A DNA stretch of 64,000 nucleotides from a virus. Positions 1,179 through 9,820 of the stretch are shown here, one piece after another (within the stretch, counting starts at the first letter, position 1; every line of letters starts with the position of its first letter). Below the pieces are notes generated by a model. That model made no database searches. It had not been told where the DNA came from and saw only the letters and a list, made by a program, of their open reading frames with translations. A program made the position numbers and the translations under genes. Where the stretch lies: IMG/VR virus record IMGVR_UViG_3300009085_000003, positions 1 through 64,000 of that record. One strand, 5' to 3'.

Positions 1179-1673
1179 CTACAGCAAGATTAGGCTCTTT
1201 ATGAAATCCGGGTCGGGCTTGATATGCTCCAAACTCCAGTTACGCTCTTTAAGCGCCTCGTAGAACAGAAACCATGGATTGAGAGACGCAGCCGCCCTGA
1301 GCTTGGCTCTGGCGTCCCGGTAGTTTGTCTGACGCTTACTGCCCTTCACCTCGACGCACACTATCATTCCGTTGTCCATGACATAAACAAAGTCTGGGGT
1401 ATACGAACCACCCGGCAGCTTGAACGTGAGCCACTCGTATAGCCGCGCCGAGACAGTGCGCCCGGTGGCGCCACTAATCAGCACAGCATCATACTGACGC
1501 CACTCATCCTCAACGGTCGAGCGAGACCGCAGGTAGAATTCCATCAACGTACGGTCGGCTGTGGATGGTGGCTTGCCGGATACCACATAGGCTTGTATGG
1601 CTTGGATAACTTCGCTGTCCAAACCATACTTCATTACTTTATCAACCGTGCTGAGTTGTTTTGCACGCGCCAT
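1179..1673 (-). CDS. PD-(D/E)XK-type phage endonuclease
   Basis: A 164-residue protein with the core of a PD-(D/E)XK nuclease: Pro93-Asp94 in YTPDFVYV, then Glu108-x-Lys110 in CVEVKGSK, followed by a Lys/Arg-rich helix and a C-terminal FLFYEA strand. This layout is typical of small phage recombination or Holliday-junction-type nucleases (DUF1064-like). The start overlaps the upstream stop (TAATG). It lies downstream of the replication genes, which fits DNA recombination or repair. The exact substrate is not deducible. Confidence 0.7.
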   Translation of the reverse strand: MARAKQLSTVDKVMKYGLDSEVIQAIQAYVVSGKPPSTADRTLMEFYLRSRSTVEDEWRQYDAVLISGATGRTVSARLYEWLTFKLPGGSYTPDFVYVMDNGMIVCVEVKGSKRQTNYRDARAKLRAAASLNPWFLFYEALKERNWSLEHIKPDPDFIKSLILL

Positions 1674-2668
1674 TACTCACCTCCAAATCGTAACCAGTGA
1701 ATCTCGTCACGCAGTATACCCGTCACCGATTCCGGGAGCACTATCTCAAAATTCACCAAAAGGCTAAAACATAACACGTGGCTCATCCACAACACATGTG
1801 GCTTGAAACTATCTGCCAGCTTGTGCCCGGTCTTGGCAGATGAGTCCCCAAAGAACTCTACAGTATCTGTAATGATTTTCTGGACACGCCGCGCATCGCC
1901 CGTCGAATCGGCAAGTTTATTAACCGCCAGTTGCAAGCGCTTGGCACGCTGGGCAATCACGTCGTTACTATACAGGCTTTCGTTCTCTTGGGCATTCATA
2001 ATCAGCTGCTCGAGCAACGCGACACCCACCTCCAAATATATCTCGGGCATCTTACGAATCACGTAGTCCTGCTTGACGCCCTGCTCGATGGAGGTCTTAA
2101 ACATGACCGATACATCTTCGCCACTCAATAGTGCGCCACGCTTAGTGTGCACGGCGCGATTCACCATGGTATTGTTAAGGCTGGCGACCACGATGTTGAG
2201 GTTTGCAAGGATTGCTGTGGGTGTTTGTTCTCCAAACCGGGATACCACGCCGTGCCCTAGGATACAGGACTCTGGGTACCCAGCCCGCCACACGGCACTC
2301 ATACCGCGACAAAAATCAGCAAGACGCTCGTACCCGCCCTCTGCTAGTTTGGCAACGTATAACGCCACCATCTTGTGCCGCGCAGACTCGAGGGCGCACA
2401 CACGCAGGTCAGACATAACATCATTGGTATTATATCGGGGATACTTGTCGCCCATGGCGTCCACCAGTTGCTTGGCGATAGCTGGCACATCAGAGTCTGG
2501 CTTAATGAACTCGACCTCAGCCATGTCGTTGACACGCTGGTGGTCGATGCGTTTCTCGCCATGCAGCATATTCAGGGCTTCGTCTTTGCTGTCTGCATAT
2601 ACCTTGGCGTAGAACACGCACGCTTTTTGCAAGATGTCTGGGGTGATATCCGTTCTCTGTTCTGACAT
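1673..2668 (-). CDS. hypothetical 331-aa helical protein
   Basis: The likely start is an ATG at 2668 with GAGAGG seven bases upstream; the spacer between them is ATTGATA, part of the recurrent 10-mer GATTGATAAT. A TTG two codons earlier would also be in frame. The protein looks almost entirely alpha-helical with no recognised motif. It is transcribed downstream of the tRNA-like RNA and its promoter, and upstream of the nuclease. I do not recognise the family. Confidence 0.6.
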   Translation of the reverse strand: MSEQRTDITPDILQKACVFYAKVYADSKDEALNMLHGEKRIDHQRVNDMAEVEFIKPDSDVPAIAKQLVDAMGDKYPRYNTNDVMSDLRVCALESARHKMVALYVAKLAEGGYERLADFCRGMSAVWRAGYPESCILGHGVVSRFGEQTPTAILANLNIVVASLNNTMVNRAVHTKRGALLSGEDVSVMFKTSIEQGVKQDYVIRKMPEIYLEVGVALLEQLIMNAQENESLYSNDVIAQRAKRLQLAVNKLADSTGDARRVQKIITDTVEFFGDSSAKTGHKLADSFKPHVLWMSHVLCFSLLVNFEIVLPESVTGILRDEIHWLRFGGE

Positions 2669-2693
2669 TATCAATCCTCTCCACGAACTAGAT

Positions 2694-2829
2694 TTGCCGA
2701 GTCAGGATTTGAACCTGATTGCCTACCATTTCGTCCATCCACCTGCTTTCGCATTTGACGCTTCACGCTAGGTTGGTAGACCGAGAAGTGTCCTAACCTC
2801 CTCTGTGTGTTCCACCACACCGCCCGGCA
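2694..2829 (-). ncRNA. tRNA-like structured RNA, about 135 nt
   Basis: The 5' segment TGCCGGG (2829-2823) pairs over seven bases (one G-U) with CTCGGCA (2701-2695). Directly 5' of CTCGGCA lies a canonical T-arm: TCAGG, loop TTCAAAT, CCTGA (2718-2702). A helix CTACC/GGTAG followed by a four-base GCAA linker sits where an anticodon stem and variable loop would be, but about 50 nt lie inside it. A possible D-like hairpin GTGT/ACAC is near the 5' end. No encoded CCA and no normal anticodon loop are seen, so this is not a standard tRNA. The 5' end matches the expected start of the promoter at 2835-2862. It could be a tRNA mimic, an intron-bearing tRNA or a leader RNA. Confidence 0.5.
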
Positions 2830-2834
2830 TCATC

Positions 2835-2862
2835 ATTGTAGCACATTGGCAGGTTTTGTCAA
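2835..2862 (-). promoter_or_regulatory. strong sigma-70 promoter for the tRNA-like RNA
   Basis: On the minus strand, TTGACA (2862-2857) and TACAAT (2840-2835) are separated by 16 bases, with TGC extending the -10. The helicase stop codon TGA is embedded in the -35 hexamer. The expected start is near 2828, at the 5' end of the tRNA-like fold. Confidence 0.7.
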
Positions 2863-4178
2863 GCGCCTCTTTCGGGACTGGCAAGATAGAACTTTTGTTC
2901 TTTGAGCGCGTATTCCAAGCGCACCACTGTATCGATGGAGCCGATACGGTTTTTGCGTATCCACAGCTCGGTCTCCTTAACGTTTGAGGCTGAGTTGGAG
3001 GCTGAGGCTTCACTCAGGTCTGGGCGGTACAGCATCATCACGCAATCGGCTTTTTGTTCAATGTCACCAGACCACCGCAGGTCAGACAACACCGGGCGCC
3101 GGTCGCCCTCCTCAGCACCGCGGTTGAGTTGGTGCACGCACATCACATGCGCATTGTATTTTTTGGACAGGTTCCGCAAATACGTTACGACCGCTGCCAG
3201 CCACATCACTGGGCTATCGGATTTTTTGTCGTCCTCGTCGATTTCATCCAAGTGGTCGACCACAATGAAGTCCGGCTTGCACGCAGCCACCGCGTGGTGT
3301 ATCTCGGACAGCTTTCGGGACACACTATCCACAAACAGGGTGTTGGGGAATTGCTGAGCCAGTCGGGTGGACTCTTTGATAAGCAGGTCGTTTTGCAACT
3401 CCGAGGTTTTACCGGCAACCACGTCACGCCACTCGATACGCATGGAGCCCGCGGCTGTGCGTGCCCACAAGTCCTCGCCGCGCAGCTCGGTGCTGAAATA
3501 GATAGCCTTTTTACCCATCGACGCGACATACTGTGCCATCTGCCACGCCAGCGCCGTTTTGCCCACAGACGTTCTGGCAGCTAACACGCTCAGCTGGGTA
3601 CGCTGCAACAGCCCCAGCGCATTATCCAGCGTGCTCAGTCCAGTAGAGACACCATCCCAGCCCTGCTTGACGCTCGCGTTAAATTTGGCAACTATCGTGT
3701 CGATATTTTCAAACGACGGCTTGCCTTGGTTGGAGTCCTTGGATAGCGTCTTGCTCATGATATCGACCGCGCCCATCAGGTCTCTGGCGGACATAAACTT
3801 CATCGCGCCCTCAATGGCGGTCAGGAAATCAATCTCACGCCCGAGCGCTACCATCCGGTCAGCATAGTGGTCGATTCGTTTCAGGTCGGGGGTCTGGTTT
3901 ATCCAGTCAATAAATCCGGCGTCGTTCTGGATGGCGTCGAGAGCCACCATGGGGTCTTGAGATTCCAACAGCGCACGCCAGACCTTGCCAGCGGCAACGT
4001 CACAGAACGAATCCGGGGATACCCATGCATATTCACTCAGGGCAATCTTGGTGTCATGTCCAATGGACGCTGCCACAAACCGGCGCTCGACGTCGCGTTT
4101 TTCCTGCGTGGTCGCCCGGAGAACATCACCGGTGCGTATCTTGGGTTGTAAAGCGGGAGACTGATTTTCGGCTGTCAT
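2859..4178 (-). CDS. DnaB-type replicative helicase
   Basis: A 439-residue RecA-fold helicase that would unwind DNA at the phage fork. The ATG at 4178 overlaps the upstream stop (TGATG). An N-terminal helical domain (about 20-150) is followed by a linker and the motor. Walker A is ARTSVGKT (about 201-208), Walker B ends in FIVVDHLDE (Asp about 308), and a conserved CVHQLNRG segment lies near 350 as in DnaB/gp41-type enzymes. The length is normal for a phage DnaB. It is cotranscribed with the winged-helix initiator, a standard initiator/helicase pair. The primase is separate, at 58772-59779. Confidence 0.88.
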   Translation of the reverse strand: MTAENQSPALQPKIRTGDVLRATTQEKRDVERRFVAASIGHDTKIALSEYAWVSPDSFCDVAAGKVWRALLESQDPMVALDAIQNDAGFIDWINQTPDLKRIDHYADRMVALGREIDFLTAIEGAMKFMSARDLMGAVDIMSKTLSKDSNQGKPSFENIDTIVAKFNASVKQGWDGVSTGLSTLDNALGLLQRTQLSVLAARTSVGKTALAWQMAQYVASMGKKAIYFSTELRGEDLWARTAAGSMRIEWRDVVAGKTSELQNDLLIKESTRLAQQFPNTLFVDSVSRKLSEIHHAVAACKPDFIVVDHLDEIDEDDKKSDSPVMWLAAVVTYLRNLSKKYNAHVMCVHQLNRGAEEGDRRPVLSDLRWSGDIEQKADCVMMLYRPDLSEASASNSASNVKETELWIRKNRIGSIDTVVRLEYALKEQKFYLASPERGA

Positions 4179-5188
4179 CACCACACCTCGTTTGCGGATT
4201 CTATTCCAAGGTCACCCTTACGCTTGGGTTTTGACTTGAGGCTGTAAGCCATGTTCGTGACGCTTTTGGGTGAGCCGATAGGCAGCTCGTCCTCGCGCAT
4301 TTTTTTGATAGCCCGCTCGATATCATCCGGCGTCAAGCCTATCGCAATCTGCTTACGAAATTCCTTGAGCCAAAAACCAAACTCGTCCCCGGTCGCCATT
4401 CGCCCGAACAGGGTGCAAAACCGCTGGGCAAGCACACGTACATCCTCTGGGAATTTACTGGCGTCGATAATTTTGACCTCGTGCTCTTGTGCGTTCCGGG
4501 CTATCCCGCGGTTCATCGCTTTGCGTGCGCTCTCCCTCCGAAGAATTGCAGGGTTGACCCCTTGTGGGTCATCTGTCGTAGTCTCTGTTAAGTTAACAGT
4601 ATCAGGTACTGTTAACGTTAACGGTACGCTAGAGGGAATTTCGGGTGTAGCATTGTCCGCTGGCGGACAGGGCGATGTATCGCCACAAACAGGGTCGTCC
4701 TGCCGAAAGACCATCTGTTGACCCTCCTCTGGTGGATTATCATCCGGGTCATTCAACGGAACCATAATGACCGGGGAGGCATGAACCACAGCCGGGCGAA
4801 ACGGTATGATGGGCTTGGAGACCACCGGTTTGTTTTTATCAATAAACAACTGCCAAAGCTCACCTAGCTTTTCGAGGTCTAGCTCATAATAGGTGGTCTG
4901 GTGCTCTCTCCACATCCCGACCGACAACTTAACGATACCCATATTTGCCAGAAGCTCTTTGGCTGCCCGGAGTCCATACCGGGACATACAGAGCTCGTCA
5001 CAGAACTCAGCATCCGATTTATAGATGCCCTCATTTGCCGCCCTCGGGTACCAGTATAGCAACTGCCCGAGCAACACCCCGGCGTCATAGGAGCCTGTGA
5101 ATTTGATGAATGCCTTGGAAACCATGAAGTAATTCCTGTCCCCCGAAACTTGCAGTAGCGTCGCCGCCAAAGAATTTGTTGACGTCAT
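4178..5188 (-). CDS. winged-helix replication initiator-like protein
   Basis: A 336-residue protein. I chose the ATG at 5188, which has GAGAGG in good position, over an in-frame TTG at 5203. Residues about 20-120 form a winged-helix domain of the phage O/DnaD type (GVLLGQLLYWYP, DAEFCDELCMSRYGLRAAKELL). A Pro/Thr-rich linker follows, then a C-terminal helical region that could bind the helicase. It is placed directly before the DnaB gene. I infer origin recognition or helicase loading; no origin iterons were identified. Confidence 0.7.
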   Translation of the reverse strand: MTSTNSLAATLLQVSGDRNYFMVSKAFIKFTGSYDAGVLLGQLLYWYPRAANEGIYKSDAEFCDELCMSRYGLRAAKELLANMGIVKLSVGMWREHQTTYYELDLEKLGELWQLFIDKNKPVVSKPIIPFRPAVVHASPVIMVPLNDPDDNPPEEGQQMVFRQDDPVCGDTSPCPPADNATPEIPSSVPLTLTVPDTVNLTETTTDDPQGVNPAILRRESARKAMNRGIARNAQEHEVKIIDASKFPEDVRVLAQRFCTLFGRMATGDEFGFWLKEFRKQIAIGLTPDDIERAIKKMREDELPIGSPKSVTNMAYSLKSKPKRKGDLGIESANEVW

Positions 5189-5305: not shown

Positions 5306-5334
5306 TTGACATTGTGTTTACAATATGCTATAGT
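5306..5334 (+). promoter_or_regulatory. sigma-70 promoter of the plus-strand operon
   Basis: TTGACA (5306-5311) and TATAGT (5329-5334) have a 17-base spacer and TGC before the -10. The ATG of the first gene is 23 bases downstream of the -10. Confidence 0.75.
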
Positions 5335-6776: not shown

Positions 6777-6804
6777 TTGACAAACCCCCACAAAGTGCTA
6801 TAAT
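6777..6804 (+). promoter_or_regulatory. sigma-70 promoter of the AAA+/VWA operon
   Basis: TTGACA (6777-6782), 16-base spacer, TATAAT (6799-6804) with TGC before it. The 31 bases at 6792-6822 recur exactly at 9755-9785. Confidence 0.8.
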
Positions 6805-6850
6805 CATAGTGTAATACAGTGTAAGACAAATCATTTTCAGGAGAGGTAAA

Positions 6851-9739: not shown

Positions 9740-9767
9740 TTGACAAATCCCTGTAAAGTGCTATAAT
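9740..9767 (+). promoter_or_regulatory. sigma-70 promoter, duplicate of the 6777 promoter
   Basis: TTGACA (9740-9745), 16-base spacer, TATAAT (9762-9767) with TGC before it. It shares a 31-base identical block with the 6777 promoter covering the -10 and start region. Confidence 0.8.
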
Positions 9768-9820
9768 CATAGTGTAATACAGTGTTCAACAAACAGGTTC
9801 AAACAGAGAGAGGACAAGCT

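What the first reader, a model, noticed from the sequence alone, without database searches (positions are those of the whole stretch)
2694..2862. A 135-nt tRNA-like RNA transcribed from its own promoter, with the start at the acceptor-stem 5' end
A seven-pair acceptor-like helix, an adjacent canonical T-arm (TTCAAAT loop) and a helix in the anticodon-stem position with a four-base variable region are present, but no normal anticodon loop, D-arm or encoded CCA. The consensus promoter places transcription at 2828-2829, the first base of the fold. It could mimic tRNA to recruit a host enzyme, or be an unspliced tRNA with an insertion of about 50 nt.
Basis: partly seen in the sequence, partly recalled or inferred. 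Interest (0 to 1): 0.72.

Follow-up and report, generated by a model that had tools for sequence, protein, structure and literature searches.

The report
Long tRNA-like RNA in a phage
Directly behind one of its own promoters, this phage carries a 136-base stretch that should fold like an oversized transfer RNA but cannot read codons in the normal way, probably a tRNA mimic of the same general kind as the long-unexplained RNA C of phage T4.

Summary
Minus strand 2829-2694 has a 7-bp acceptor-like helix, a canonical T arm (TCAGG-TTCAAAT-CCTGA), a discriminator-like A and no CCA. The combination is unique in the window and absent from 40 simulated windows. It starts within 1 nt of the predicted start of a promoter belonging to a family used elsewhere in this phage. 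All arms and linker lengths then match a class II tRNA plan with a giant variable arm, and this is the unconstrained minimum-energy fold. ARAGORN and Rfam miss it. It fills a 160-nt leader before a 331-aa gene; the seven other promoters checked have 16-47 nt leaders. No homologue was found, so covariation in this element is untested. Two phages sharing its terminase lineage each carry one oversized tRNA-like RNA, and no normal tRNA was detected in them. T4 RNA C (139 nt, function unknown) is built the same way, with strong covariation. Best reading: a promoter-driven tRNA-mimic RNA cut from its mRNA, not a decoding adaptor. Main rival: a leader element that stays on the mRNA.

The parts
2835..2862 (-). 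Promoter TTGACA-16-TACAAT with TG before the -10
   Evidence: 11 of 12; member of the phage promoter family TTGACAAA...GTGC-TAYAAT, seen also at 5306, 6777, 9740, 34204 (+) and 60144 (-)
2823..2829 (-). Acceptor-like helix, 5' strand TGCCGGG; predicted +1 at 2828-2829
   Evidence: pair probability 0.81-1.0
2805..2820 (-). D-position hairpin GTGTG-GTGGAA-CACAC (loop holds GG), 2-nt linker before and 1-nt linker after as in tRNA
   Evidence: minimum-energy fold, pair probability 0.97-0.98
2783..2803 (-). Anticodon-position hairpin GAGGAG-GTTAGGACA-CTTCTC; not a normal 7-nt anticodon loop
   Evidence: 0.97-0.98
2721..2781 (-). Giant variable arm: outer helix GTCTACCA/TGGTAGGC (2781-2774/2728-2721), inner helices ACCT(A)GC/GCAGGT and GCGT/ATGC
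   Evidence: outer helix 0.74, inner about 0.5-0.6
2702..2718 (-). T arm TCAGG-TTCAAAT-CCTGA
   Evidence: 0.83-1.0
2694..2701 (-). Acceptor-like helix, 3' strand CTCGGCA (2701-2695), then A73-like base 2694; no encoded CCA
2666..2693 (-). Remaining leader of normal length with Shine-Dalgarno GGAGAGG (2682-2676) and ATG 2668-2666
   Evidence: leader lengths
1673..2668 (-). Downstream gene, 331 aa, predicted all-helical, no family
   Evidence: AlphaFold pLDDT 39.8, not usable
2859..4184 (-). Upstream gene on the same strand, DnaB-like replicative helicase; its end overlaps the -35 region

Best explanation
A phage-encoded, promoter-driven, oversized tRNA-like RNA. The promoter starts the transcript at the 5' end of the acceptor-like helix, so little or no 5' trimming is needed. 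The first 135-136 nt fold on the class II tRNA plan (acceptor 7 bp, D-position hairpin, anticodon-position hairpin, very long variable arm, T arm, A73). Polymerase reads on into the 331-aa gene. Host tRNA 3'-processing (RNase Z or exonucleases) probably cuts after A73 and CCA may be added, leaving a stable non-coding RNA and an mRNA with an ordinary leader of about 25 nt. Without a normal anticodon loop it cannot be a standard adaptor, so it most likely acts by mimicry, engaging a protein that recognises the acceptor/T-arm elbow of tRNA (for example a tRNA-cleaving defence nuclease, or a processing or decay enzyme). Shown: the anatomy, its improbability by chance, the promoter match, and analogous RNAs in related phages and in T4. 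Inferred: expression, processing, stability and target.
For: Unique and not chance. The unconstrained fold gives all five arms with tRNA linker lengths 2, 1, 1, 2, 0. Promoter of the phage's own family, start at the helix end. 160-nt leader against 16-47 nt at seven other promoters of this phage, the extra length being the tRNA-like unit. Phages sharing its terminase (49-50% identity) each carry one oversized tRNA-like RNA: G014, L183:12914-13022, same GTGC-TATGAT promoter style, helix starting about 10 nt after the -10, tRNA model 24.7 bits; G011, L174:1712-1814 minus, 31.2 bits, over the family cut-off; ARAGORN finds no tRNA in them. T4 RNA C has the same acceptor/long variable arm/T arm build with covariation (14 pairs changed on both sides, 5.6 in shuffles; acceptor, variable and T helices each with at least one) and is a detected RNA of unknown function (PMC9697503, PMC3014915). 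The phage's real tRNAs also lack encoded CCA.
Against: No homologue of this RNA was found, so its own helices are not tested by covariation. No terminator. With 220 nt of downstream mRNA the equilibrium fold loses the acceptor, T arm and outer variable helix, so formation depends on co-transcriptional folding or prompt processing. No partner or target was identified. The RNAs of relatives share the kind of structure and position behind a promoter, not sequence.
Confidence: 0.5

Rival explanations
1. A 5'-leader element that stays on the mRNA of the 331-aa gene: a tRNA-like fold at the very 5' end shields the transcript from 5'-end-dependent decay, or binds a tRNA-recognising protein to regulate translation.
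For: No terminator, gene start 26 nt downstream, fold begins at +1.
Against: The Shine-Dalgarno region lies outside the tRNA-like unit and no alternative pairing that would switch it was identified; a full T arm with canonical loop and A73 is more than an end-protecting stem needs.
Confidence: 0.25
2. A decayed or rearranged tRNA gene, probably tRNA-Leu-derived, with no present function.
For: Best local matches of the 5' half and of the variable arm are D arms of tRNA-Leu genes.
Against: These matches are weak (5 of 60 and 38 of 60 shuffles as good). Helices that no tRNA has are perfectly paired (8-bp outer variable helix, 6-bp anticodon-position stem), and promoter and start are intact.
Confidence: 0.12
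3. A tRNA with an insertion that is removed by splicing to give a working tRNA.
For: Other viral contigs hold tRNAs with 47-48 nt inserts in the anticodon arm.
Against: No excision that I could see leaves a recognisable D arm plus 7-nt anticodon loop; ARAGORN intron modes fail at default thresholds; no RtcB in the phage.
Confidence: 0.05
4. A bacterial or phage Y RNA (YrlA type): tRNA-like module plus a Ro60-binding stem.
For: Size range 90-150 nt and tRNA mimicry fit (PMC8394870); phage Y RNAs have been proposed (PMC12282133).
Against: No TROVE/Ro60 or DUF2828 protein in the 79.6-kb record; here the ends form the acceptor next to the T arm, whereas in YrlA they form the large basal stem that holds the Ro60 homologue (PMC8394870).
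Confidence: 0.04
5. Chance pairing in an ordinary leader.
For: 42 of 852 real 136-nt windows fold as stably.
Against: Zero hits for the tRNA-like combination in 40 simulated windows and 0 of 2130 real windows, plus coincidence with +1.
Confidence: 0.04

Closest known systems
Phage T4 RNA C (species 1 RNA, rnaC, 139 nt)
   Same: Length, acceptor-like ends, hairpin in the variable position, canonical T arm, no working anticodon; covariation-supported tRNA-like fold.
   Different: No sequence similarity; RNA C lies inside a tRNA operon, has two U-U mismatches in the acceptor and one long arm instead of two hairpins; the present RNA has its own promoter and heads an mRNA.
tRNAs with anticodon-arm inserts in viral contigs (L028, L116) and in terminase relatives (G014, G011)
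   Same: tRNA ends with an enlarged middle; G014 also starts just behind its promoter.
   Different: They keep a recognisable D arm and anticodon stem or score with the tRNA model (24.7-54 bits); the present RNA does not.
YrlA-type bacterial Y RNA
   Same: tRNA-mimicking non-coding RNA of 90-150 nt (PMC8394870).
   Different: No Ro60-type protein in the phage; different connectivity of the ends.
tmRNA
   Same: tRNA-like ends with a long helix in place of the anticodon arm in one reading.
   Different: Far too short for a tag frame; ARAGORN tmRNA mode and Rfam give no tmRNA match.

Membership tests
tRNA (canonical) | 7-bp acceptor plus T arm with TTCRANY loop, G53-C61 | tested here: met
tRNA (canonical) | 7-nt anticodon loop on a 5-bp stem | tested here: not met
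   hairpin in that position has a 6-bp stem and 9-nt loop
tRNA (canonical) | Recognised by tRNA models | tested here: not met
   ARAGORN 0 at default thresholds; Rfam RF00005 no match at E 10, while T4 tRNA-Arg and L028 are found
T4 RNA C family | Sequence homology to rnaC | tested here: not met
   314 of 500 shuffles align as well
T4 RNA C family | Long RNA with acceptor, variable-position hairpin and T arm but no anticodon loop | tested here: met
T4 RNA C family | Stable processed RNA during infection | not testable with these tools
   needs RNA from infected host
Y RNA (YrlA) | Ro60/TROVE-type protein encoded with it | tested here: not met
   (TROVE control rang in Deinobacterium; DUF2828 rang in G003, G019, G022); the record may be incomplete
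tmRNA | Tag reading frame and tmRNA model match | tested here: not met
Spliced tRNA | Standard tRNA left after removing an insert | tested here: not met
   ARAGORN intron modes at default thresholds

The most novel reading that the evidence does not exclude
Phages of this terminase lineage carry nearly leaderless, promoter-driven, fast-evolving tRNA-mimic RNAs that standard tRNA finders tend to miss; together with T4 RNA C they would define a general class of phage tRNA decoys aimed at host tRNA-targeting enzymes.
Probability: 0.25. Interest if true: 0.78.

Novelty: new variant of a known kind. Interest (0 to 1): 0.52.

Why it matters
T4 RNA C has been known for decades without a function. Independent RNAs with the same plan in unrelated phages, one of them behind its own promoter at the head of an operon, would mean that oversized tRNA mimics are a recurrent phage tool and would give several systems in which to test what they bind. 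They also show a class that current annotation tools tend to overlook.

Tried and rejected
Homologues of the element by DNA in phages, plasmids and held relatives: none. Exact 21-mer of T arm plus acceptor in viral contigs: none. Relatives through DnaB and the 331-aa protein: none in viral contigs or phages at usable similarity; terminase gave 18 viral loci, but only one of 13 records searched held a DnaB match (30% identity) and none the 331-aa gene. tRNA-Leu origin: suggestive but within shuffle range. Shared GCGTCAA in the variable arms of this RNA and T4 RNA C: treated as coincidence, overall alignment not above shuffles. Structure of the 331-aa protein: pLDDT 39.8, not used. T4-type RNA ligase search: the control did not ring, so uninformative. 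The pattern had the wrong spacing, so its empty result says nothing.

Full report
Setting. The window is bases 1-64000 of a 79,569-base virus record, G000, G+C 52.6%. Its terminase is distantly related to those of Streptomyces phages and Pontimonas phage phiPsal1 (23-25% identity) and at 48-61% to uncultivated viruses. The element lies between a DnaB-like helicase gene (2859-4184, minus) and a 331-aa gene without family (1673-2668, minus), both on its own strand. The record has two normal tRNAs, Met (CAT) and Arg (TCT), at about 69.7 and 70.7 kb, neither with an encoded CCA.

Observation. The minus strand from 2829 to 2694 reads TGCCGGG CG GTGTG-GTGGAA-CACAC A GAGGAG-GTTAGGACA-CTTCTC G GTCTACCA...TGGTAGGC AA TCAGG-TTCAAAT-CCTGA CTCGGCA A. 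The unconstrained minimum-energy fold has exactly these five arms. Pair probabilities for the RNA alone are 0.81-1.0 for acceptor and T arm, 0.97-0.98 for the two hairpins and 0.74 for the outer variable helix. Linkers of 2, 1, 1, 2 and 0 nt and the 7+5 bp acceptor/T stack are those of a class II tRNA. The D-position loop GUGGAA holds a GG, so a D-loop/T-loop contact is possible (inference).

Chance. A scan for a 5-bp T stem with TTCRANY loop plus an adjacent 7-bp helix found this one site in the window and none in 40 simulated windows. None of 2130 real 136-nt windows folds into such a shape. Stability alone is not exceptional: 42 of 852 real windows are as stable.

Promoter and transcript. 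TTGACA-16-TACAAT with extended -10 belongs to a set of closely similar phage promoters. Leaders behind seven other promoters are 16-47 nt; here the leader is 160 nt, and what remains after the tRNA-like unit is an ordinary stretch with GGAGAGG and ATG. No terminator was seen just after the element. The picture is a tRNA-like unit placed between promoter and a normal leader. With 220 nt of downstream mRNA the predicted equilibrium fold loses the acceptor, T arm and outer variable helix, so early folding or cutting would matter.

Known models. ARAGORN finds nothing at default thresholds, including intron and tmRNA modes. Rfam gives no match at gathering threshold and no tRNA match at E 10. In the same setting T4 tRNA-Arg is found.

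Relatives. No homologue of the RNA itself was found. Thirteen viral records with related terminases plus the terminase contig found in a Methanothrix bin were scanned. ARAGORN found no tRNA in the fetched stretches, but two records have one oversized tRNA-like RNA each. G014 (L183:12914-13022) has an 8-bp acceptor, a normal D arm, an enlarged anticodon arm and a T arm, and lies behind TTGACA-17-TATGAT with the GTGC extension typical of this phage's promoters; the helix begins about 10 nt after the -10. G011 (L174:1712-1814, minus) has a 10-bp acceptor and scores 31.2 bits, over the tRNA cut-off. A relaxed search gives 2.4 chance hits per 600 kb, so canonical T loops and promoter position are what carry these two.

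Wider comparison. A promoter plus T-arm pattern scan of viral contigs (truncated) and a geometry scan of 1.13 Mb around the hits brought up further oversized tRNA-like RNAs: L028, a tRNA with a 47-nt insert in the anticodon loop, 54 bits; L116, 48-nt insert, 40 bits; L082 and L030, whose acceptors also start 10 nt after a -10; and the L105 group.

T4 RNA C. rnaC (L131:1409-1547, minus) ends in a canonical T arm next to an acceptor-like helix and has a hairpin in the variable position. Across seven T4-like phages the structure shows 14 pairs changed on both sides against 5.6 in shuffles and 0-4 when slid, including acceptor G-C to A-U and T-stem changes. Its function is described as unknown (PMC3014915, PMC9697503). 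It is the closest known RNA in plan, not in sequence.

Mechanism. Shown: anatomy, improbability, promoter match, analogues. Inferred: transcription from the acceptor end, cutting after A73, CCA addition, stability, and action by mimicry. The preferred target class is a protein that reads the tRNA elbow; [quoted passage not shown] Nothing here singles out one enzyme. A leader element that stays on the mRNA is the strongest rival.

Verdict. A real, unusual feature; new variant of a known but unexplained kind. The lack of homologues keeps confidence near one half.

Noticed in passing
L105:698-814 (+), L107:183-299 (+), L110:3166-3280 (-), L115:8391-8506 (-), L112 near 8510 (-): Family of 115-120 nt tRNA-like RNAs whose anticodon arm is replaced by an insert with the shared motif ATCCTGnnAAGGATACA-n-CAGCAA followed by TTCCA...GGA; in L105 and L107 GGATGCTAACAGCAA follows the RNA. 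Possible phage Y-RNA-like family.
   Followed up: partly
L162 minus strand, about 2750-2630 (record G003): A strong promoter and a leader with two CTAACAGCAA motifs sit directly before a DUF2828 gene (PHROG 850 'RNA-binding protein' family in L078); the same motif as in the L105 group, whose record also encodes DUF2828.
   Followed up: partly
L028 minus strand, within 928-812: The 47-nt insert in the anticodon loop of this tRNA is itself a minihelix with acceptor-like stem, T arm and ACCA: a small tRNA-like unit nested in a tRNA.
   Followed up: partly
L078:828-1125 (+): Permuted tmRNA (74.5 bits) in a 10.3-kb viral contig that also has an interrupted tRNA just before a DUF2828 gene.
   Followed up: no
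L131:1409-1547 (-) and relatives: In T4 RNA C an invariant UGAC in the long arm can pair with an invariant GUCA in the variable loop, a possible loop-loop contact; invariance means no covariation evidence.
   Followed up: partly
window 6777-6830 and 9740-9790 (+): Two promoters of the phage family share the 17 bases CATAGTGTAATACAGTG after the -10, possibly an operator; they head a MoxR-type ATPase/VWA gene pair and the 399-aa gene.
   Followed up: no
L183:13023-13145 (+): Directly after the G014 tRNA-like RNA lies a second strongly structured stretch closed by a 10-bp helix (GATGGGCGGG/CCCGCCCATC), no Rfam match.
   Followed up: no
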